DNA from: an uncultured Pelagibacteraceae bacterium
GTDB taxonomy: Bacteria > Pseudomonadota > Alphaproteobacteria > Pelagibacterales > Pelagibacteraceae
Direction: 5' to 3'
Assembly (NCBI GenBank): GCA_902518185.1
Contig: CABYFG010000005.1
Location: 1 to 64,000, forward strand
Length of the DNA: 64,000 nt
Below the pieces are notes generated by a model, which saw only the letters and a list, made by a program, of their open reading frames with translations, was not told the DNA's origin and ran no database searches. Within the stretch, counting starts at the first letter, position 1; every line of letters starts with the position of its first letter. A program made the translations under genes and the position numbers. Below, piece by piece: positions 22,165 through 34,433 of this stretch.

Positions 22165-22872
22165 TTAACCAAAATTTTGTAAGAATGGAAAAATATTTAA
22201 TAAATAATATCCCAAGGCTTGCAATTGATTTGTTAATATCAAAATACCAGTAATTAATAGAATTATTCCACCTATTTTTGAAACTAAATTGATATTCTTT
22301 CTAAAATTTTTTGAAAAAATAAGGAACCTTTGTATTAAATAACCTGATAAAATAAACGGTATAGCTAATCCAATAGAGTAAAAAGATAACAATAATATTC
22401 CTTGGCTTAAACTTTCCTCAGTTGCGGCTAAAACTAAAATAGATCCTAAAATAGGTCCAATGCATGGTGTCCAACCAAATGCAAATGCCATTCCTATTAA
22501 TATTGGGCTAAATACACTTTTGTTAATATTTGTTTGAATTCTTTTTTCATAATTTAAAAATTTTAAATTTATTATTCCAATTATATGAAACGATAAGATT
22601 ATTATAACTAGTCCTGCGGCTATTCTTAATTCATAAGAATTATCCAGAAAAATTTTTCCAAGAAAAGTTGAAGCTGCTCCAAAAGTTATAAAGACTAAAG
22701 AAAAGCCAACTGTAAATAGAATAATTGGAAATAAATTGATGTTCTTTTTATCAACAAGTTCATCTATAGAACTTCCAGAAATATAAGAAATATAACCAGG
22801 TATGAGTGGTAAAACGCATGGTGATAAAAAACTTATCAATCCAGCTCCAAATGCAATAATTAATTCAATCAT
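22165..22872 (-). CDS. ccdA: Cytochrome c biogenesis protein CcdA
   Basis: GAGLISFLSPCVLPLIPGYISYISG and AFGWTPCIGPILGSIL. Confidence 0.95.
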   Translation of the reverse strand: MIELIIAFGAGLISFLSPCVLPLIPGYISYISGSSIDELVDKKNINLFPIILFTVGFSLVFITFGAASTFLGKIFLDNSYELRIAAGLVIIILSFHIIGIINLKFLNYEKRIQTNINKSVFSPILIGMAFAFGWTPCIGPILGSILVLAATEESLSQGILLLSFYSIGLAIPFILSGYLIQRFLIFSKNFRKNINLVSKIGGIILLITGILILTNQLQALGYYLLNIFPFLQNFG

Positions 22873-23717
22873 TACTTTTCTTTAACAACTTTCAATTTTT
22901 GTTCCCCAAGATTGTCTACCTTTAAAATCATTTCATCACCATCTTTTAAATAATCTGGTGGATTCATTCCCATCCCCACTCCTGCTGGTGTGCCTGTTGT
23001 GATAATATCACCTGGCATTAAAGTTATAAATTGACTTATATGTGAAATTAAAAAATTAAAATTAAATATCATTAAACTGGTATTTCCTGTTTGTCTTCTT
23101 TTTCCATTAAGATCTAAAGATAAATTTAAATTAAATAGATTATCAATTTCATCCTTTGTTACCAAATACGGACCCAATGGACCAAAAGTGTCTCCAGATT
23201 TACCTTTTACCCATTGACCACCTCTATCTTTTTGCCATTCTCTCTCACTTATATCATTACAAATACAATAACCTAGTACATGTTTCTGAGCTTCATCCTC
23301 TTTAACATATTTAGCTTTACTTCCAATAACCATTGCAATTTCTACTTCGTGATCTAAAGACTTTGAATTTTTCGGTATTACAATATTATCATTTGGTCCG
23401 ACAATACAATTTGGAGATTTATTAAAAACAATTGGCTCTTTTGGAGCATCAGAATTTGTTTCCTCAGCATGAGCCTTATAATTTAAACCTATTGCTATAA
23501 AATTTGCTGGTTTTATTACACAAGGTCCAATTCTTTTGATGCTTTCAATCAATGGAAGAGAATTTAAATCTAGCTTTTTTATTTTATCTAAATTTTCAAA
23601 ATTCAATGTGTCAGGGTTTAAATCATTAATTAATGACGATAAATCTCGGTAATTGTTTTCGCTATCAATGATTGCGGGTTTTTCTTCTCCAACACTACCT
23701 ATTCTACACAATTTCAT
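22872..23717 (-). CDS. Fumarylacetoacetate hydrolase family protein
   Basis: IAIGLNYKAHAEET, DHEVEIAMVIG, GYCICNDISEREWQ, TGTPAGVGMGMNP. Confidence 0.93.
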   Translation of the reverse strand: MKLCRIGSVGEEKPAIIDSENNYRDLSSLINDLNPDTLNFENLDKIKKLDLNSLPLIESIKRIGPCVIKPANFIAIGLNYKAHAEETNSDAPKEPIVFNKSPNCIVGPNDNIVIPKNSKSLDHEVEIAMVIGSKAKYVKEDEAQKHVLGYCICNDISEREWQKDRGGQWVKGKSGDTFGPLGPYLVTKDEIDNLFNLNLSLDLNGKRRQTGNTSLMIFNFNFLISHISQFITLMPGDIITTGTPAGVGMGMNPPDYLKDGDEMILKVDNLGEQKLKVVKEK

Positions 23718-23777: not shown

Positions 23778-24680
23778 TCAATAATTTGTGGTTCTTGCTA
23801 ATCGAGCTGCACCCCGAACACCGCTTGCGTCACCAAATTTAGGTTTTAAAAAAGTCCCCTCAAATTCACCCCCTGCCACAAATTTTTTCATTTTTTGTTT
23901 AATTTCATCTAAAAAATTTATTTCGTTAGATACCCCGCCCCCGAAAACAAACACATCTGGATCAATAATATTAACAACAGTGGCTAAAGACATAGCAAGT
24001 TGATCCTTATATTTATCAATTAGTTTTTCTGCATCTAAATCAAGTTTTCTATGCATTTCAAATATCTTTTGAGCAGATAAATCTTTTTTAAACTCGTTTT
24101 TGAACGCTTTAGAAATGCCTATACCTGCAACAAAGTTCTCTATTTCTCCAGCTCTTAAATTAGTTTTTTTTATTTGAACACCTTCAATACAAGCACTCGG
24201 TATTTGATTGTGCCCCCATTCTCCAGTAATCCCATTAGGTCCATTGACAATTCGTTTATCTATAACTAAACCGCCTCCAACACCAGATCCAAGAATTACC
24301 CCAAAAACAATTTTATAATGTTTTCCAGAACCATCTATTGCTTCTGATAAAGCAAAACAGTTTGCATCATTTTCACAATAAATTTCTTTACCAATCTCAC
24401 TCCGCAAATCTCTTTGTAAAGGTTTACCATTTATCCAAAAAGAATTAGGCGCATTTTTAACTAGTCCTGTTTGAATAGAATGAATCCCTGGATGACACAC
24501 GCCCACTGGTAATTCTTTACCAGCTTTACGCTCGAGTTCGATAACTATTTCTTTAATTATGGATAATGTATCTTTATAATTTTTTGGAACTTCGGTTCTT
24601 TCTCTATGATGCTCATTGCCAACATCATCTAATAACACATACTCTATTTTACTTGCCCCAAGATCGATACCAATCTGCAT
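23778..24680 (-). CDS. ROK-family sugar kinase
   Basis: IGIDLGASKIEYVLLD, ENDANCFALSEA, GVILGSGVGGGLV, FGGGVSN. Confidence 0.9.
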   Translation of the reverse strand: MQIGIDLGASKIEYVLLDDVGNEHHRERTEVPKNYKDTLSIIKEIVIELERKAGKELPVGVCHPGIHSIQTGLVKNAPNSFWINGKPLQRDLRSEIGKEIYCENDANCFALSEAIDGSGKHYKIVFGVILGSGVGGGLVIDKRIVNGPNGITGEWGHNQIPSACIEGVQIKKTNLRAGEIENFVAGIGISKAFKNEFKKDLSAQKIFEMHRKLDLDAEKLIDKYKDQLAMSLATVVNIIDPDVFVFGGGVSNEINFLDEIKQKMKKFVAGGEFEGTFLKPKFGDASGVRGAARLARTTNY

Positions 24681-25849: not shown

Positions 25850-27694
25850 TTATACTCCCTGTCTTTGTTTTGCTTTGCCTTCTTTGTGTAATTTTAGAGC
25901 TTTTTCATTTTCTTTGGTTTTAGGAATTTCTAAAGTTGGACTTTCCCAATAAGCTGATCCTTCAAGCCATTGATACGAATGAGTTTTGATTGAAATAACG
26001 TAAGTCACTTTTGATTTCTTCGCTCTTTTGAAAGCTTCCTCTAATTCACTGATAGAACTTACCTCTTCAGACTTTGCCCCCATACTTTCTGCATGTTTTG
26101 CAAAATTTACTTTTACTAAATTTGAGACATTTGAACTCTCAAATAAACAATTAAATTCTTTTCCACCTTTAAATAATTGAAGTCTATTAATGACAGCGTG
26201 ACCACCATTATCACAGACAATTACAATTAGTTTATTATTAGTTATTACAGATGAATATATATCTGAATTATAAAGTAAATATGATCCATCACCTACAAAT
26301 GTGATAACTTCTTTGTTTGGATTAGCCATTTTAATTCCTAAAGCTCCAGAAATTTCATAACTCATACAACTAAAGCCCCACTCTGTTTCATGAGTATTAA
26401 GTTCTCTTGGTCTCCAAATTTGAACAACTTCACCTACCAAACCTCCAGCTGCAGTGACAGCGATATCACTTGGATCAGAGTTTCTATAAATTGCACCAAC
26501 TGCATGAGCATAACTTGGGAGTTTTTGATTAGTTGGTCCACTTTCTTTATCAACATATTCATTCCAAGATTTAAGTTCATCTCTAGATTTTTTATGCCAT
26601 TCCTCGGATGCTTTCCAATCACCTAAAGCTTGTGATAGTTCATTTAGAGAAACTTTTGCATCTCCAATAATTGATTGTGCCATATGCTTACTAGCATCAA
26701 ATCTTGCAACATTAATTGATACTAATGAAAAATTTGGGTTTTCAAAATTGGACCATGATCCAGTTGTGAAATCTCCTAACTTAGTTCCAATAGCAATCGC
26801 TAAATCAGTTTTTTTTGCAAAGTTGTTTGCTGCTTTTCCTCCTAAACCTCCAATAGGTCCTAAAAAATGAGAATGGTCTCTTTTCATAGAAGAATAACCC
26901 ATTACAGTTTGTGTTACAGGTATATTGTGTTTAACTGCAAAAGTAGAAAGTTCCTCCATTGCATCTGAGTAAAAAACACCTCCACCAGAAATTATGATTG
27001 GATTTTTTGATTTTTTAATTTTTTCAGCTGCCTCTTTAATTTGAAAATCATCAGGTCTTGGTCTTCGTATATTATGGATTTTTTCTTTAAAAAAATCCTC
27101 AGGATAATCAAAAATTTCTCCTTGTATATCCTGACATAAAGATATGCATACTGGACCACAATCAGCTGGGTCTAATAAAACTTGTACAGCTTGGGGAAAT
27201 GTTTGTAAAATTTGTTCTGGTCTGGTTATTCTATCAAAATATTTTGTAACTGGTTTAAAAGCATCATTTTGAGTAATTCCTGGATTATTAAAATGTTCTA
27301 CTTGTTGTAAAACTGGATCAGGCATCCTGTTTGCGTAAGTATCACCTGGAAGAAATAAAATTGGTAGTCTATTACTCATCGCAACTGCTGCAGCTGTTAC
27401 CATATTTGTAGAACCAGGACCTACAGAACTTGTTGCTACAAATACTTGTTTTCTTCTTTTTGCTCTAGCGTAAGCAATTCCTGTTAAAGCCATGTTTTGC
27501 TCATGATGACCTCTATAAGTAGGAAGTTTATCTTTATTTTCCTCTAAAGCTTGTCCTAAACAAGCTACATTACCATGACCAAATATTCCAAAAGCACCAG
27601 CGAATAAAGGTTCTTTTTTACCATCGATAAGAATTTTTTGAGAAGTCAGGAACTTTACAATTGCATGAGCACATGTAAGCTTTATTTTTTTCAT
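25850..27694 (-). CDS. iolD: 3D-(3,5/4)-trihydroxycyclohexane-1,2-dione acylhydrolase
   Basis: FGIFGHGNVACLGQAL, RGHHEQNMALTGIAYARA, TPP domain GDGSYLLYNSDIYSS; IolD pattern. Confidence 0.93.
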   Translation of the reverse strand: MKKIKLTCAHAIVKFLTSQKILIDGKKEPLFAGAFGIFGHGNVACLGQALEENKDKLPTYRGHHEQNMALTGIAYARAKRRKQVFVATSSVGPGSTNMVTAAAVAMSNRLPILFLPGDTYANRMPDPVLQQVEHFNNPGITQNDAFKPVTKYFDRITRPEQILQTFPQAVQVLLDPADCGPVCISLCQDIQGEIFDYPEDFFKEKIHNIRRPRPDDFQIKEAAEKIKKSKNPIIISGGGVFYSDAMEELSTFAVKHNIPVTQTVMGYSSMKRDHSHFLGPIGGLGGKAANNFAKKTDLAIAIGTKLGDFTTGSWSNFENPNFSLVSINVARFDASKHMAQSIIGDAKVSLNELSQALGDWKASEEWHKKSRDELKSWNEYVDKESGPTNQKLPSYAHAVGAIYRNSDPSDIAVTAAGGLVGEVVQIWRPRELNTHETEWGFSCMSYEISGALGIKMANPNKEVITFVGDGSYLLYNSDIYSSVITNNKLIVIVCDNGGHAVINRLQLFKGGKEFNCLFESSNVSNLVKVNFAKHAESMGAKSEEVSSISELEEAFKRAKKSKVTYVISIKTHSYQWLEGSAYWESPTLEIPKTKENEKALKLHKEGKAKQRQGV

Positions 27695-27748
27695 AATTGT
27701 AGATATATTCTCTTAAAATTTCACTTAATTAACCATAAAATAAAAATT

Positions 27749-29191
27749 ATGTATAGTAAATTTGGGCAGTTCATTGATGGTAAGTGGCAACAAGCGGAAA
27801 AAAAAGAAACTTACGACGTTATAAATCCAGCTACGGAAGAAATTATTGGCCAAGCGTCTAAAGCTTCTTCAGCAGATGTTCAAAAAGCTCTTAAATCTGC
27901 AGTGAAAGGTTTGGAAGTTTGGAAAAACACTTTACCTTGGCAGAGATCATATATTATTAGAAAAATTGCTGATCTTTTAAGAAAAAAACAAGATGTTTTA
28001 GCAAAATGGTTAACGATTGAAGTTGGAAAACCTTTGGCAGAGGGAATTGGCGAAACTGGCGGGGCTGCTGATATTTTTGAGTGGAATGCTGAAGAAACAA
28101 AAAGAATTTATGGACAAACAGTCGAAAGTCGATTTCCAGATACGAGAGTTCATGTTTATTATCAGCCAGTTGGAGTTGTAGCAGCTTTAGTGCCATGGAA
28201 TTTTCCTTTGATTCTAGCAGCAAGAAAAATTTCAACAGCATTAGCTGCCGGATGTTCAGTAATTTGTAAGCCTGATGTAATTACTCCAGGAACAGTAATG
28301 GAGTTGGTAGATATTTGTAAAGAAGCGGGAGTCCCTCCTGGAGTTGTAAACTTATTATCAGGAGATCCTGAAAGTATTTCAAATGAGTTGTTAGAGTCTG
28401 ATATTATTAAAAAAGTTTCAATAACTGGATCAACAAGAGTAGGTAAATTAATCTTAAAAAAGGCCGCAGATAAAGTTCAAAGAGTCACAATGGAGCTTAG
28501 TGGACACTCACCTTTTATAGTTTTTGATGATGTTGATATAAATAAAGTTGCAGATATGGCAATTACTGCAAAATTTAGAAATAATGGTCAAGTTTGTATT
28601 TCACCTAACAGATTTTATATACAAGAAAATAAAAAAGACGAATTCATTAATGCGTTTATTGAAAGGACAAAAAAATTAAAAATTGGAAATGGTTTAGATG
28701 AAGGGGTTCAGTTAGGTCCTTTAACAACTGCAAAAAGATTAGGAGAAATAGAAGAATTAGTTGAAACAACTAAAAAGGAAGGAGCAAAAGTTTTATTGGG
28801 TGGAAAAAGACCTCAAGGATTTAACAAAGGATATTTTTATGAGCCAACAGTTTTTGACAATGTAAAGGACAATTTTACAATAATGAAACAAGAACCATTT
28901 GGTCCATTAGTTCCAATGTTGTCATTTAAAACTTTTGATGAAGTAGTTGAGAGAGCTAATGATAATGACTTAGGATTATGTAGTTATATTTATACAAATT
29001 CTATGGACAAAGCTCACAGAGCTTCAGAATTAATGGAAACTGGTACTGTTGCAGTAAACACTCCTGCAGTTGCGATAGCTGAGGCACCTTTTGGCGGAAT
29101 TAAACAAACTGGATATGGACGTGAAGGTGGTTCAATGGCAATTAAAGATTATCTTAATATAAAGTACACTCACCTTGGTTTGAAATCTTAA
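27749..29191 (+). CDS. Aldehyde dehydrogenase (semialdehyde-dehydrogenase-like)
   Basis: VNLLSGD, ELSGHSPFIVFDD, NNGQVCISPNRF; start set at Met38 of ORF (MYSKFGQFIDGKW); upstream part would overlap iolD. Confidence 0.93.
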   Translation: MYSKFGQFIDGKWQQAEKKETYDVINPATEEIIGQASKASSADVQKALKSAVKGLEVWKNTLPWQRSYIIRKIADLLRKKQDVLAKWLTIEVGKPLAEGIGETGGAADIFEWNAEETKRIYGQTVESRFPDTRVHVYYQPVGVVAALVPWNFPLILAARKISTALAAGCSVICKPDVITPGTVMELVDICKEAGVPPGVVNLLSGDPESISNELLESDIIKKVSITGSTRVGKLILKKAADKVQRVTMELSGHSPFIVFDDVDINKVADMAITAKFRNNGQVCISPNRFYIQENKKDEFINAFIERTKKLKIGNGLDEGVQLGPLTTAKRLGEIEELVETTKKEGAKVLLGGKRPQGFNKGYFYEPTVFDNVKDNFTIMKQEPFGPLVPMLSFKTFDEVVERANDNDLGLCSYIYTNSMDKAHRASELMETGTVAVNTPAVAIAEAPFGGIKQTGYGREGGSMAIKDYLNIKYTHLGLKS

Positions 29192-29192
29192 A

Positions 29193-29984
29193 ATGAGGCC
29201 AAATAAAATAAAAAAGATGATGAGAGATGGTGAGCAAATAATTAATGGCTGGTTACAAATTCCTAGCTCTTTTTCAGCGGAAGTAATGTCTCATCAAGGT
29301 TGGGACTCGCTTACAATTGATATGCAACATGGTGTTATCGATTATCCAAATGCATTACAAATGCTGCAATCAATTTCATCTACAGATGTTACTCCTTTAG
29401 CAAGAGTAAACTGGAATGAACCAGGACAAATAATGAAAATTTTAGATGCAGGGTGCTACGGCGTAATTTGTCCAATGGTGAGCAACAAATTTGAAGCTGA
29501 AAAATTTGTTCAAGCATGTATGTATCCCCCTAAAGGGTATAGAAGTTTTGGACCAATTAGAGGATTAATTTATGGAGGTTCAGATTATGGAGATTTTGCC
29601 AACGATGAGATTTTAAAAATGGCAATGATAGAGACAAAAGAGGCCTTGGATAAATTAGATGAAATTATGAGTACGCCTGGAATAGATGGAATTTATATTG
29701 GACCGGCTGATTTAAGTCTGGCCATAGGTCAAAAACCAGCTTTTGATAATCCTGAAGGAAGTCCAACTTATGAAAAGATTTTGAATATCTTGGAACATGC
29801 AAAAAAAAATAAAATTTTTGCAGGTATTCATAATGCTAGTCCAGAGTATGCAAAAAAAATGCTTAATTTAGGATTTAATTTGGTAACCATTGGATCCGAT
29901 CAAAGGTATATGAGTGCAGGTGCAAAAGATGCTGTATCTAAATTAAAATCAATCAAATCAAAAGAAGACTCTAAAGCTTACTAA
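29193..29984 (+). CDS. HpcH/HpaI family aldolase
   Basis: NGWLQIPSSFSAEVMSHQGWDSLTIDMQHGVIDY; GIDGIYIGPADLSLAIG. Confidence 0.93.
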   Translation: MRPNKIKKMMRDGEQIINGWLQIPSSFSAEVMSHQGWDSLTIDMQHGVIDYPNALQMLQSISSTDVTPLARVNWNEPGQIMKILDAGCYGVICPMVSNKFEAEKFVQACMYPPKGYRSFGPIRGLIYGGSDYGDFANDEILKMAMIETKEALDKLDEIMSTPGIDGIYIGPADLSLAIGQKPAFDNPEGSPTYEKILNILEHAKKNKIFAGIHNASPEYAKKMLNLGFNLVTIGSDQRYMSAGAKDAVSKLKSIKSKEDSKAY

Positions 29985-29990
29985 ATTTAA

Positions 29991-30956
29991 GTGTCAGATA
30001 AAAAAAAAATTTTGATAATTCAACCTATTCATAAAGCGGGGATAGATCTCATAAAGAATAACACAAATTATGATTATGAGATTATTGAAAATATAGATGA
30101 CAAAGATATTGAACAAAAAATTTTGGAGTGTGATGGTCTATCAATTAGAACAGCAAATTTATCTAGCGAATTAATCAATATATCAAAAAAACTTAAGATT
30201 ATATCTCGCCATGGCGTTGGGTACGACAATATTGACTTAAAATCTTCTAGAGAAAAAAATATCACCTTGGCAGTTACGGCTACAGCAAATGCTGTTGCGG
30301 TGGCAGAACATGTTATGTTTATGTTGCTCAATATATCAAAGAGAAAAAACATGTATGATGAGGCTGTTAAAACAGGAAATTTTTCTAAGAGAAATAAACT
30401 TCCAAAAACAATAGAACTTTGGAAAAAAAATATTTTAATTGCTGGATTTGGTAGAATTGGTCAATCTTTAATTAGAAGATGCAAAGGATTTGAAATGAAT
30501 GTTTTTGTTTATGATCCATTTGTTTCAAAAGATATTATTGAGGAATTGGGTGGAAAAAAAGTTGAAGATCTTACAGAAGCAGTAAAATCTATGGATGCCA
30601 TTTCTTTACATATGCCTCTTAATGAAAAAACGAAAAATATTATTAATTATGACTTACTTAAAACAATGAGGAAAAATTGTATAATTATTAATGCTGCAAG
30701 AGGTGGAATGATTAATGAGAATGACTTAGATAAAGCATTAAATGAAAGTCTTATATTTGGTGCAGGTTTAGATGTTTTTGAAACAGAACCACCTAAAGAG
30801 GATAATCCTTTGCTAAAAAACAATAAAGTTTTTTTAAGTCCTCATACCGCTGCATTTACTGAAGAATGCATGATAAGAATGGGAAAAGAAACAATACAAA
30901 ATATAATTGATTTTTTTGAAAAAAAATTAGACAAATCAAAAATTATTAAACTTTAA
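29991..30956 (+). CDS. D-isomer specific 2-hydroxyacid dehydrogenase (PGDH-like); GTG start
   Basis: ILIAGFGRIGQSLIRRCKGF, HMPLNEKTKNIIN, NAARGGMINENDL. Confidence 0.93.
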   Translation: MSDKKKILIIQPIHKAGIDLIKNNTNYDYEIIENIDDKDIEQKILECDGLSIRTANLSSELINISKKLKIISRHGVGYDNIDLKSSREKNITLAVTATANAVAVAEHVMFMLLNISKRKNMYDEAVKTGNFSKRNKLPKTIELWKKNILIAGFGRIGQSLIRRCKGFEMNVFVYDPFVSKDIIEELGGKKVEDLTEAVKSMDAISLHMPLNEKTKNIINYDLLKTMRKNCIIINAARGGMINENDLDKALNESLIFGAGLDVFETEPPKEDNPLLKNNKVFLSPHTAAFTEECMIRMGKETIQNIIDFFEKKLDKSKIIKL

Positions 30957-30958
30957 TT

Positions 30959-31459
30959 ATGCGAATAAATTTCAAAAATTTTGGACTATTAGAAGCATTA
31001 GTATTGTTATCATTAGTATATGTGGTTGGTATGTTGATCTGGACTGCAAGTACAAGGCCCGCAGTTGAAGCAAAAGCTAACTTAGTCAAAGAAAATCATA
31101 AGAAAGTAGTCGATTTTATCAATGGAGAAATAAATAATTGTGGGAATAATGATGAAGGTAAATTGACTGTTTGGGGTGATCCGTGTAATGGCGAGTGGTC
31201 CTCATCTAAAGTTGTGAATTATATAAACAAAAATCTTAATATAGAGAATCCTTTTTCAGAGGATACTAAAGTAAAAACTGATCCTGATCCTAGAATTAAA
31301 GCAGAAGGTAAGGCGGGGCAATCAGTTGAGATGGGTGTTATATTTGTGATGTCATCAAATTTTTTACCTGATCCTGGATCTGAATGGGTTGTGGGTACTT
31401 GTTTTAAATCTCCTTGTGTTGCTGCCGGAAATAATGAACTAACTTCACTCTATAGATAA
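30959..31459 (+). CDS. Hypothetical membrane-anchored protein, pilin-like N-terminus
   Basis: MRINFKNFGLLEALVLLSLVYVVGMLIW...; paired Cys in the C-terminal part. Confidence 0.7.
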   Translation: MRINFKNFGLLEALVLLSLVYVVGMLIWTASTRPAVEAKANLVKENHKKVVDFINGEINNCGNNDEGKLTVWGDPCNGEWSSSKVVNYINKNLNIENPFSEDTKVKTDPDPRIKAEGKAGQSVEMGVIFVMSSNFLPDPGSEWVVGTCFKSPCVAAGNNELTSLYR

Positions 31460-32362
31460 TCAATTTCTATAAATTTCAATTTCAGATTTTTTTAATGTAT
31501 CTGTAAGATAATTATAACCAATTTTTGCATACTCCAACGGATTTGCTTTTGCCGGATCCTGCTCTGCCTCAACCACCAACCATCCTGAATAATTATTTTT
31601 TTTTAATACATTAAATAAAGGTTGATAATCAATACAACCATCTCCAGGCACTGTAAACGCTCCCTCTAAGAAAGCACCTCTAAAACTTAAGTCCTCTTTT
31701 AAAGATTTTTCAAGAACTTGTTTTCTTATATCTTTACAATGAACGTGCAAAATTCTCTCATGATAATTTTGTAATATGGATTTTGAGTCTCCTTTTGCAA
31801 ATAACATGTGTCCTGTATCTAATGTTAATTTTACACTTTCATGAGTATTTTCTATAAGTCTTTCAGTATCTTTTTGAGTTTCAATTACTGTTCCCATATG
31901 ATGATGATATGCCAAAGGCATCCCTTCATCCTCTAAATATTTTCCTAGTTCAGAAATTTTTTCACAAAACTTCTGCCATTCGTCCCTTTCCATTTGGGGC
32001 CGAGTTGATAATTTTCTATTAGGATCTCCTTGTATAGAGCCAGAAACTTCTGCGAAAACTATACAAGGTGCATCACAATCTTTAAATAAATCTAGTTGTT
32101 CTTGAATGGATTTTTTTTCTTCCTCAACAGAATTTTTTCTTAGATTAGCACCATACCATCCTGAGCAAAGTTTAAGATTAAATTGATTTAATTTTGGAAT
32201 TAATTCCGAAGATTTCTTTGGAAATTTTCCACCAGACTCTATGCCTATATAGCCTGCTTCATTAGCTTCTTTTAAACATTGTTCTAATGTAGTTTCACCA
32301 CCTAACTCGGGCATGTCATCATTACTCCATGCAATGGGTGCAACTCCTAATTTTACTGACAT
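31460..32362 (-). CDS. iolE: myo-inosose-2 dehydratase-like sugar phosphate isomerase/epimerase
   Basis: VKLGVAPIAWSNDDMPELGGETTLEQCLKEANEAGYIGIE; LTLDTGHMLFAKGD; GDGCIDYQPLF. Confidence 0.87.
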   Translation of the reverse strand: MSVKLGVAPIAWSNDDMPELGGETTLEQCLKEANEAGYIGIESGGKFPKKSSELIPKLNQFNLKLCSGWYGANLRKNSVEEEKKSIQEQLDLFKDCDAPCIVFAEVSGSIQGDPNRKLSTRPQMERDEWQKFCEKISELGKYLEDEGMPLAYHHHMGTVIETQKDTERLIENTHESVKLTLDTGHMLFAKGDSKSILQNYHERILHVHCKDIRKQVLEKSLKEDLSFRGAFLEGAFTVPGDGCIDYQPLFNVLKKNNYSGWLVVEAEQDPAKANPLEYAKIGYNYLTDTLKKSEIEIYRN

Positions 32363-32406
32363 AAGAAATTTTTTTAGTTAAGTTATTATTTTAATACAAA
32401 TTTTAA

Positions 32407-33408
32407 ATGATTGATATAGCTTTATTTGGACTTGGTAGAATTGGTATTATGCATGGAAAAAATTTAATGCGTAGTAAAGATTTTAATCTTAAATATATTT
32501 ATGACATTGAACAAAAATTATCTAAAAAATATTCAAAAACATTAAAAACAAAAGCTATAAACAAACCATCTGTGGCTTATAAAGATAAAAATATAAAAGC
32601 TATTTTTATTGCCTCAACAACATCGACACATATTAGATTTATTTTAGATGGTGTTAAAAATAGAAAAATTATCTTTTGTGAAAAACCACTGGATTTAAGT
32701 ATTAAAAAAATTGAAACTTGCAAAAAAAAAATTAATAAATTAAATCCAAAAATACAAATAGGTTTTAATAGACGATATGATCCAACACACAATAGCTTAA
32801 GAAAACAATTACTTAGTGGAAAAATAGGTAAATTAGAAAAAATTATTATCACTAGTCGTGATCCTGCCCCGCCAACTATGAAATATCTAAAAGAATCTGG
32901 TGGTATTTTTAGAGATATGATGATCCATGATTTTGATCTTGTTAGATTCTACCTTAGTAATGATGAGCCTGCAAAAATAATAGCCTCTGGCAGCAACATA
33001 TCAGACAAAAGATTTGATAAAATAAAAGATTTTGAATTAGCATCTACCATAATTAGATCTAAAGCTGGTGTTCAGTGCATAATAACTAATTCCAGACATT
33101 GTAGTTTTGGTTATGATCAAAGAATAGAATTATTTGGATCAAAAGGTATGTTAATTTCAGAAAATAAAAGACAAAACGAGACATCTATATATTCTGCACA
33201 ATCAACTTCAAATAAATCTCCTCTGCTTAATTTTTTTATTGATAGGTATAAAGATGCTTACAAAAATCAATTAAAGGATTTTGCAAAATTTATTAGAAAG
33301 AAAATTCAACCTCTTGCAGGATTTGAAGAGGGAAGAAAAGCTCTGATAATTGCGAATGCAGCTCAAAAATCTTTAAGATCAAAAAAGTTTGAAAAACTTA
33401 ATCTTTAA
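32407..33408 (+). CDS. Gfo/Idh/MocA oxidoreductase, inositol 2-dehydrogenase-like
   Basis: IALFGLGRIGIMHGKNL, FCEKPLDLS, QIGFNRRYDPTHNSLR, GGIFRDMMIHDFDLVRFYL. Confidence 0.87.
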   Translation: MIDIALFGLGRIGIMHGKNLMRSKDFNLKYIYDIEQKLSKKYSKTLKTKAINKPSVAYKDKNIKAIFIASTTSTHIRFILDGVKNRKIIFCEKPLDLSIKKIETCKKKINKLNPKIQIGFNRRYDPTHNSLRKQLLSGKIGKLEKIIITSRDPAPPTMKYLKESGGIFRDMMIHDFDLVRFYLSNDEPAKIIASGSNISDKRFDKIKDFELASTIIRSKAGVQCIITNSRHCSFGYDQRIELFGSKGMLISENKRQNETSIYSAQSTSNKSPLLNFFIDRYKDAYKNQLKDFAKFIRKKIQPLAGFEEGRKALIIANAAQKSLRSKKFEKLNL

Positions 33409-33509
33409 TTGAATCAACCCTTAGTAGAATACAACCTGTCTGCTTTACAACTAAATGATATTTTGATTAGATTTTACTTTTAAAAGTTAACTTTAATTAA
33501 AGGGGAATA

Positions 33510-34433
33510 ATGAAAAAAATAAAAAACTTTATATTAGCTTTAGCTGCATGGGCAATGATGTCTGTATCTGCTTTAGCTGTAGATATAATTGTGGTTTCTC
33601 ATGGTCAAGCAAACGATCCTTTCTGGTCAGTTGCTAAAAATGGAGTTGATGCTGGATGTAAAGACATGGGAGTGTCTTGCAAATACACAGCACCAGCTAC
33701 TTTTGACATGGTAGAAATGGCAAAATTAATTGATAATGCTGTATCACAAAAACCTAAAGGTATTGTGATCACATTACCAGATGCTGCTGCTTTAGGAAAA
33801 TCAGTTAAAGCTGCGATTGCTGCTGGTATTCCTGTAATATCAATGAACTCTGGATCTGATGATTATGCATCTTTAGGAATTAGTGCACACGTTGGACAAA
33901 CTGAGTTTGAAGCAGGTGTAGGTGGTGGACAAAAAATGAAAGCCGCTGGTGGAAAAAAAGCATTATGTGTTAACCATGAGGTCGGAAACGTTGCACTTGA
34001 TAGAAGATGTGCTGGTTTCAAAAAAGGTTTCGGTGGATCTGTTGATATTTTAGGTACTTCAAATGATCCAACAGAAATTCAAAAAGCTGTTGCTGCAAAA
34101 TTAGGTGGTGGCTATGACACTATTCTAACTTTAGGTGCTGGATTATCTGGTGAAGCAGCTTTGAAAGCACTTGAGTCAGCTGGAAAAGTTGGTTCTGTAA
34201 GATTAGGAACATTTGATATGTCTCCAAATATGTTAAAAGCTGCTGCTGCAGGAAAAGTAGAGTTTTTAATTGACCAACAGCAATATCTACAAGGATATTT
34301 ACCAATAGCTATCTTTGGACAATATATGAGATGGGGAACAATGCCAGCAGGTGTAGTAATGACTGGACCTGGGTTCGTAACTCCTGACAATGCGTCTAAA
34401 GTAATTAAATGGGCAGCTCAAGGTTATAGATAA
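33510..34433 (+). CDS. Sugar-type ABC transporter substrate-binding protein
   Basis: Signal peptide; VVSHGQANDPFWSVAKNGVDAG; KPKGIVITLPDA. Confidence 0.93.
   Translation: MKKIKNFILALAAWAMMSVSALAVDIIVVSHGQANDPFWSVAKNGVDAGCKDMGVSCKYTAPATFDMVEMAKLIDNAVSQKPKGIVITLPDAAALGKSVKAAIAAGIPVISMNSGSDDYASLGISAHVGQTEFEAGVGGGQKMKAAGGKKALCVNHEVGNVALDRRCAGFKKGFGGSVDILGTSNDPTEIQKAVAAKLGGGYDTILTLGAGLSGEAALKALESAGKVGSVRLGTFDMSPNMLKAAAAGKVEFLIDQQQYLQGYLPIAIFGQYMRWGTMPAGVVMTGPGFVTPDNASKVIKWAAQGYR

What the first reader, a model, noticed from the sequence alone, without database searches (positions are those of the whole stretch)
23778..24680. ROK kinase with erased zinc motif
ROK kinases usually carry GH...CxCGxxGCxE. 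Here the equivalent stretch is GHNQIPSACIEGVQIKKTNLRAGEIENFVAG: the flanking GH and EN(F/Y) are kept but the CxCGxxGC cysteines are gone, while the Asp/Gly catalytic motifs remain. It sits next to iolD and a Gfo/Idh gene, so its substrate may be an inositol-derived keto-sugar rather than GlcNAc or glucose.
Basis: partly seen in the sequence, partly recalled or inferred. Interest (0 to 1): 0.6.

Follow-up and report, generated by a model that had tools for sequence, protein, structure and literature searches.

The report
Zinc-less sugar kinase of SAR11 bacteria
This is a working-looking sugar kinase from the ocean bacterium SAR11 that lost the zinc-binding loop most of its relatives keep; the loss happened once in an ancestor of a SAR11-only branch, and the gene is not tied to inositol breakdown as first suggested.

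Summary
ORF 23778-24680(-), 300 aa, is a ROK kinase (PF00480, E 7e-62) with intact catalytic and sugar-binding residues (D6, K11, N104, D105, E154, H157, E181) but no CxCGxxGC zinc loop. The organism is SAR11 (Pelagibacteraceae). In a tree, all 26 zinc-less sequences form one SAR11-only clade (100/100) nested among zinc-bearing proteins of the E. coli Mak (fructokinase) type, near SAR11 homologues that keep CYCGKKGC. So the motif was most simply lost once. Purifying selection is strong (dN/dS 0.01-0.05 among close relatives), and the model folds as a ROK kinase, closest to NagK (TM 0.89). Zinc-less ROK kinases are already known (NanK of Fusobacterium, Staphylococcus, Listeria), so this is a new variant of a known kind. 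The inositol-substrate idea is weakened: adjacency to iolD is real, but 8 of 8 genomes of another zinc-less branch and a complete SAR11 genome carry the kinase without iolD, zinc-bearing SAR11 homologues also sit in iolD islands, and the upstream partner gene changes between lineages. Best reading: an ATP-dependent hexose-type kinase without structural zinc, carried in a variable SAR11 sugar-catabolism island; substrate unproven. Side finding: SAR11 iolG/E/D clusters lack iolB and iolC.

The parts
23778..24680 (-). ROK-family sugar kinase, 300 aa, Mak (fructokinase) type, zinc loop absent
   Evidence: PF00480 E 6.8e-62; best NCBIfam PRK09557 281 bits (below its 443 cut-off); tree
24138..24212 (-). 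stretch from H157 (of GH) to E181 that replaces the zinc hairpin
   Evidence: alignment; lowest-confidence part of the model, residues 161-180 pLDDT 54-62
24366..24368 (-). codon of catalytic base Asp105 (ENDAN)
   Evidence: 26 of 26 conserved in the zinc-less clade; D105 shown essential in PsNagK (PMC10031466)
24684..25844 (-). Gfo/Idh/MocA oxidoreductase, 3 bases upstream of the kinase
   Evidence: PF01408, PF22725; no NCBIfam equivalog reached (best iolG 60 of 355 bits)
25850..27694 (-). iolD, 5 bases upstream of the Gfo/Idh gene
   Evidence: TIGR04377 807 bits, cut-off 715
22872..23717 (-). fumarylacetoacetate-hydrolase family gene downstream, 60 bases from the kinase; commonest downstream neighbour
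   Evidence: PF01557; neighbour table

Best explanation
A functional ATP-dependent sugar kinase of the ROK family that descends from zinc-bearing Mak-type (fructokinase-like) kinases and lost the structural zinc hairpin once, in the ancestor of a SAR11-only clade. The active site is kept, so it most likely moves the gamma-phosphate of ATP onto the primary (C6-type) hydroxyl of a hexose-like sugar, with D105 as base and N104/E154/H157/E181 holding the sugar, while the region after GH folds without metal. It is carried as an exchangeable module of a variable SAR11 carbohydrate-catabolism island that in this genome also holds an inositol cluster. Shown: sequence, phylogeny, selection, residue conservation, predicted fold, context. 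Inferred: kinase activity, zinc independence in vitro, hexose substrate.
For: Pfam/NCBIfam: Mak 281 bits, NagK 212, glucokinase 125. Tree: zinc-less clade 100/100, nested with zinc-bearing SAR11 homologues and Mak-type sequences of other Alphaproteobacteria. Catalytic and sugar-contact positions conserved 26/26 (H157). dN/dS 0.009-0.049 against relatives at 89% protein identity or more (dS of the more distant pairs is near saturation). Model pLDDT 88, pTM 0.87; best PDB match PsNagK with GlcNAc and ADP, TM 0.89. Zinc-less NanK of F. nucleatum keeps the same active-site residues (PMC5458393). Context.
Against: No activity data. The clade lies on a long branch (0.94) and carries active-site differences from Mak (G9A, T132S, C102-E103 before N104-D105, one extra residue at P78 in the loop before W82), so the Mak substrate may not be retained. 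Cysteine mutants of B. subtilis glucokinase are inactive (Mesak 2004, as cited in PMC5458393), so zinc loss could impair a ROK enzyme.
Confidence: 0.6

Rival explanations
1. One reading: the kinase works in inositol breakdown, standing in for the missing IolC by phosphorylating a keto-sugar acid such as 2-deoxy-5-keto-gluconate (DKG).
For: iolD-Gfo/Idh-ROK spacing of 5 and 3 bases, with Gfo/Idh directly upstream in over 40 loci; in L065-type loci it overlaps the inositol-type ABC ATPase gene; co-occurrence with iolD 10/14 versus 1/23, p 3e-5; in single-contig G267 the only full-length PfkB looks like an adenosine kinase, so no IolC was found.
Against: Zinc-less ROK without iolD in 8/8 L059-type genomes and in complete G012. 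iolB absent everywhere, so DKG has no known source. The cluster's aldolase is HpaI-type, not IolJ-type. Co-occurrence is confounded by sharing one island and by relatedness.
Confidence: 0.12
2. A neofunctionalised kinase whose substrate is the product of the dehydrogenase/reductase encoded just upstream (Gfo/Idh, SDR or AKR), i.e. a sugar, keto-sugar or polyol-derived sugar other than fructose.
For: Clade-specific active-site changes and long branch; an oxidoreductase gene lies directly upstream in most loci; neighbouring transporters are sugar-type ABC or TctABC.
Against: In L059-type and L065-type loci the upstream gene is an aldolase or an ABC ATPase, not an oxidoreductase; no substrate can be read from the sequence.
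Confidence: 0.22
3. A decaying or non-catalytic relative (pseudo-kinase or regulator).
For: Loss of a motif reported as essential in B. subtilis glucokinase (PMC5458393, citing Mesak 2004).
Against: dN/dS 0.01-0.05, intact catalytic residues, no DNA-binding domain (the ROK domain fills the 300 aa), operonic position kept.
Confidence: 0.05

Closest known systems
E. coli Mak (YajF) fructokinase, ROK family
   Same: Best-scoring NCBIfam family (281 bits); GEWGHN(P/Q)xP and NDANCxAxSEAxDG stretches shared; falls in the same part of the tree
   Different: Mak keeps CYCGKQGC; the window protein has none of the ligand cysteines, plus G9A, T132S and one extra residue in the sugar loop; below the family cut-off of 443 bits
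SAR11 ROK proteins L011/L012 (G010, G018)
   Same: Same genus, same kind of island, sister side of the tree
   Different: Keep CYCGKKGC; neighbours are an aldo/keto reductase and a HIBADH-type dehydrogenase
Zinc-less N-acetylmannosamine kinases (F. nucleatum NanK 5NCK, S. aureus NanK 6Q26, L. monocytogenes 4HTL)
   Same: ROK fold and active site without the cysteine zinc motif (PMC5458393)
   Different: Only 20-24% identity and another ROK subfamily; the motif loss is independent
Plesiomonas NagK (7P7W/7P7I)
   Same: Closest solved structure, TM 0.89, 32% identity; sugar contacts N104, D105, E154, H157 line up (PMC10031466)
   Different: Carries the structural zinc; GlcNAc kinase

Membership tests
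ROK family (PF00480) | Family profile over the gathering score | tested here: met
   210 bits versus 22.9
ROK family kinases | DxGxT ATP motif, catalytic Asp, ExGH sugar motif | tested here: met
   D6-L-G8-A-S10, D105, E154-W-G-H157; D6, G8, K11, D105 and E154 26/26 in the clade, G156 and H157 invariant; S replaces T at position 10 in 11 of 26
ROK family kinases | CxCGxxGCx(E/D) zinc motif | tested here: not met
   All three cysteines absent, final Glu (E181) kept; the motif is already known to be absent in some NanKs (PMC5458393)
Mak fructokinase (NCBIfam PRK09557) | Score over the curated cut-off | tested here: not met
   281 versus 443 bits
Mak fructokinase | Phylogenetic placement among Mak-type sequences | tested here: met
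   Nested with zinc-bearing SAR11 and alphaproteobacterial Mak-type rows (98/95, 98/87); deep forks weak and outgroup sparse
Mak fructokinase | Fructose 6-phosphorylation | not testable with these tools
   needs enzyme assay
IolC (5-dehydro-2-deoxygluconokinase) | PfkB-family fold / TIGR04382 | tested here: not met
   ROK, not PfkB; no TIGR04382 match over cut-off in 61 genomes
Inositol pathway membership | Present only where iolD is present | tested here: not met
   8/8 L059-type genomes and complete G012 have the ROK but no iolD over cut-off; the L059-type genomes are partial single-cell assemblies, G012 is complete

The most novel reading that the evidence does not exclude
The zinc-less SAR11 clade is a neofunctionalised ROK kinase: losing the zinc hairpin, together with the extra residue in the sugar loop and the changed phosphate-loop residues, opened the active site to a sugar or sugar-acid that other ROK kinases do not use, possibly also sparing zinc in metal-poor surface water.
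Probability: 0.25. Interest if true: 0.5.

Novelty: new variant of a known kind. Interest (0 to 1): 0.27.

Why it matters
It places a single clean loss of a textbook ROK signature inside one genus-level group, with zinc-bearing sister sequences available in the same group, so the role of the structural zinc can be tested by comparing close relatives. [quoted passage not shown] It is not a new kind of enzyme.

Tried and rejected
Inositol-specific role: tested by iolD, iolB, iolC and iolE searches across genomes and by neighbour tables; weakened, not excluded. Clustering with known zinc-less NanKs: only 20-24% identity, rejected as close kin. Several independent losses (the three loop types looked like it at first): the tree puts all in one clade, so one loss suffices. 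Sequencing error or pseudogene: rejected by 26 distinct sequences and dN/dS. PfkB gene in related islands as an IolC stand-in: it scores as ribokinase (TIGR02152 312 bits over cut-off). Zinc-economy explanation: a paper on SAR11 metals (PMC4771312) says SAR11 minimises metal uptake but keeps high-affinity zinc uptake in half of the genomes, so no clear support. Literature: no paper found on SAR11 inositol islands or this kinase in the held library.

Full report
The finding was checked first. ORF 23778-24680 on the minus strand encodes 300 aa and matches PF00480 over its whole length with 210 bits. NCBIfam ranks it nearest to the Mak fructokinase model (281 bits), then NagK (212) and ROK glucokinase (125), all below their cut-offs. 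In alignment with E. coli Mak, NagK, NanK and AlsK and 28 alphaproteobacterial relatives, the stretch after GEWGH lacks all three zinc-ligand cysteines, while H157 and the Glu that ends the CxCGxxGCxE motif (E181) remain.

The source is SAR11. Near-identical copies (89-100%) occur in about 40 Pelagibacteraceae single-cell genomes and MAGs and in a single-contig 1.2 Mb genome of the same genus (G267, 99% complete, 99% identical). More distant zinc-less relatives (47-69%) are all SAR11, while the best non-SAR11 matches (40-44%) keep three cysteines. Four sequences, one of them SAR11, carry a shifted Cx5Cx4C version.

A maximum-likelihood tree of 61 sequences puts all 26 zinc-less rows in one clade (100/100) on a long branch, together with zinc-bearing SAR11 rows L011/L012, L127 and the shifted-motif rows in a supported group (98/95), among Mak-type sequences. 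The three kinds of replacement loop, including a near-complete deletion in L065-type sequences (GHIPIGKPDSETNIEEY), are therefore most simply later divergence after one loss. Deep forks are weak and the outgroup is small.

The protein looks functional. D6, G8, K11, N104, D105, E154 and E181 are conserved in 26 of 26, and H157 is invariant in alignment A1. Pairwise dN/dS against relatives at 89% identity or more is 0.009-0.049. The AlphaFold model has pLDDT 88.4 and pTM 0.87, with the weakest confidence at residues 161-180, the replaced hairpin. Its best solved match is Plesiomonas NagK with GlcNAc and ADP, TM 0.89. In that enzyme N104, D105, E154 and H157 contact the sugar and D105 is the essential base (PMC10031466). 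Clade-specific differences from zinc-bearing Mak-type rows are G9A, T132S, C102-E103 before N104-D105, and one extra residue at P78; the resulting NAPN stretch resembles the APN stretch of ROK glucokinase-type sequences. These could mean changed specificity.

Zinc-less ROK kinases are known. F. nucleatum NanK lacks the motif yet keeps the active site, and the same paper reports the lack in S. aureus and L. monocytogenes enzymes, while noting that cysteine mutants of B. subtilis glucokinase are inactive (PMC5458393). The window protein is only 20-24% identical to these, so this is an independent loss in another subfamily.

The context was then tested. In the window the order is iolD, Gfo/Idh, ROK with gaps of 5 and 3 bases. 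Across loci, however, the gene directly upstream of the ROK is Gfo/Idh, SDR, AKR, HpaI aldolase or an ABC ATPase, and the downstream gene is most often an FAH-family gene, otherwise a CUT1 sugar-binding protein or others. The surrounding region is a variable carbohydrate island with ribokinase, RbsD/FucU, mandelate-racemase-type dehydratase, PdxA, TctABC, CUT1 ABC transporters, IlvD/EDD and lactonase genes in different combinations. ROK and iolD co-occur in the genus (10 of 14 versus 1 of 23 genomes), but eight of eight L059-type genomes and the complete genome G012 carry the zinc-less ROK without iolD, and zinc-bearing L012 sits in an iolD island (L115). Inositol is therefore an association of this lineage's island, not a fixed property of the kinase.

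The inositol clusters themselves are unusual. iolD (11 of 61 genomes) and iolE (7 of 37) pass their cut-offs, iolB is absent from all 61 genomes and from G267, and no iolC match passes its cut-off. The only full-length PfkB in G267 looks like an adenosine kinase (judged from its sequence, no family scan was completed). A published survey treats iolB, C, D and E as essential (PMC9430895). An aldehyde dehydrogenase, an HpaI-type aldolase and a 2-hydroxyacid dehydrogenase accompany iolD, and a methylmalonate-semialdehyde dehydrogenase homologue is present (708 bits in G267). One speculative route would oxidise 5-deoxyglucuronate and cleave it to hydroxypyruvate and malonate semialdehyde, needing no sugar kinase. 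The IolD product carries no primary hydroxyl, which argues against a C6-type kinase acting on it (pathway chemistry, inference).

Conclusion: a real, SAR11-specific, zinc-less variant of a Mak-type ROK sugar kinase; the most likely substrate is a hexose-like sugar; the inositol reading is possible but not favoured.

Noticed in passing
window 25850-34433 and L113, L065, L119, L176: SAR11 inositol clusters (iolG, iolE, iolD, rhizopine/inositol-type ABC transporter) lack iolB and iolC in every genome searched; an aldehyde dehydrogenase, an HpaI-type aldolase and a 2-hydroxyacid dehydrogenase accompany iolD, suggesting a different lower pathway (perhaps to hydroxypyruvate plus malonate semialdehyde).
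   Followed up: partly
window 30959-31459: Small protein with an N-terminal hydrophobic helix (pilin-like look) conserved between the 2-hydroxyacid dehydrogenase gene and iolE in many SAR11 inositol clusters; no family assigned.
   Followed up: no
L015, L126, L129, L131: A separate ROK branch with a shifted cysteine motif (C-x5-C-x4-C, e.g. CNVGNCKRPLC) and DWGH instead of EWGH, in one SAR11 genome and in another alphaproteobacterial family.
   Followed up: partly
L105 12108-18979, L113 7602-14460: MR-type dehydratase, PdxA-like dehydrogenase, TctABC transporter, SDR and the ROK lie together in several SAR11 genomes; whether the ROK serves as the kinase for the PdxA-like step was not tested.
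   Followed up: no
window 27638-29191: The listed TTG start of the aldehyde dehydrogenase ORF overlaps iolD; the Pfam Aldedh match starts at residue 50, so the real start is probably a downstream ATG near 27740.
   Followed up: no
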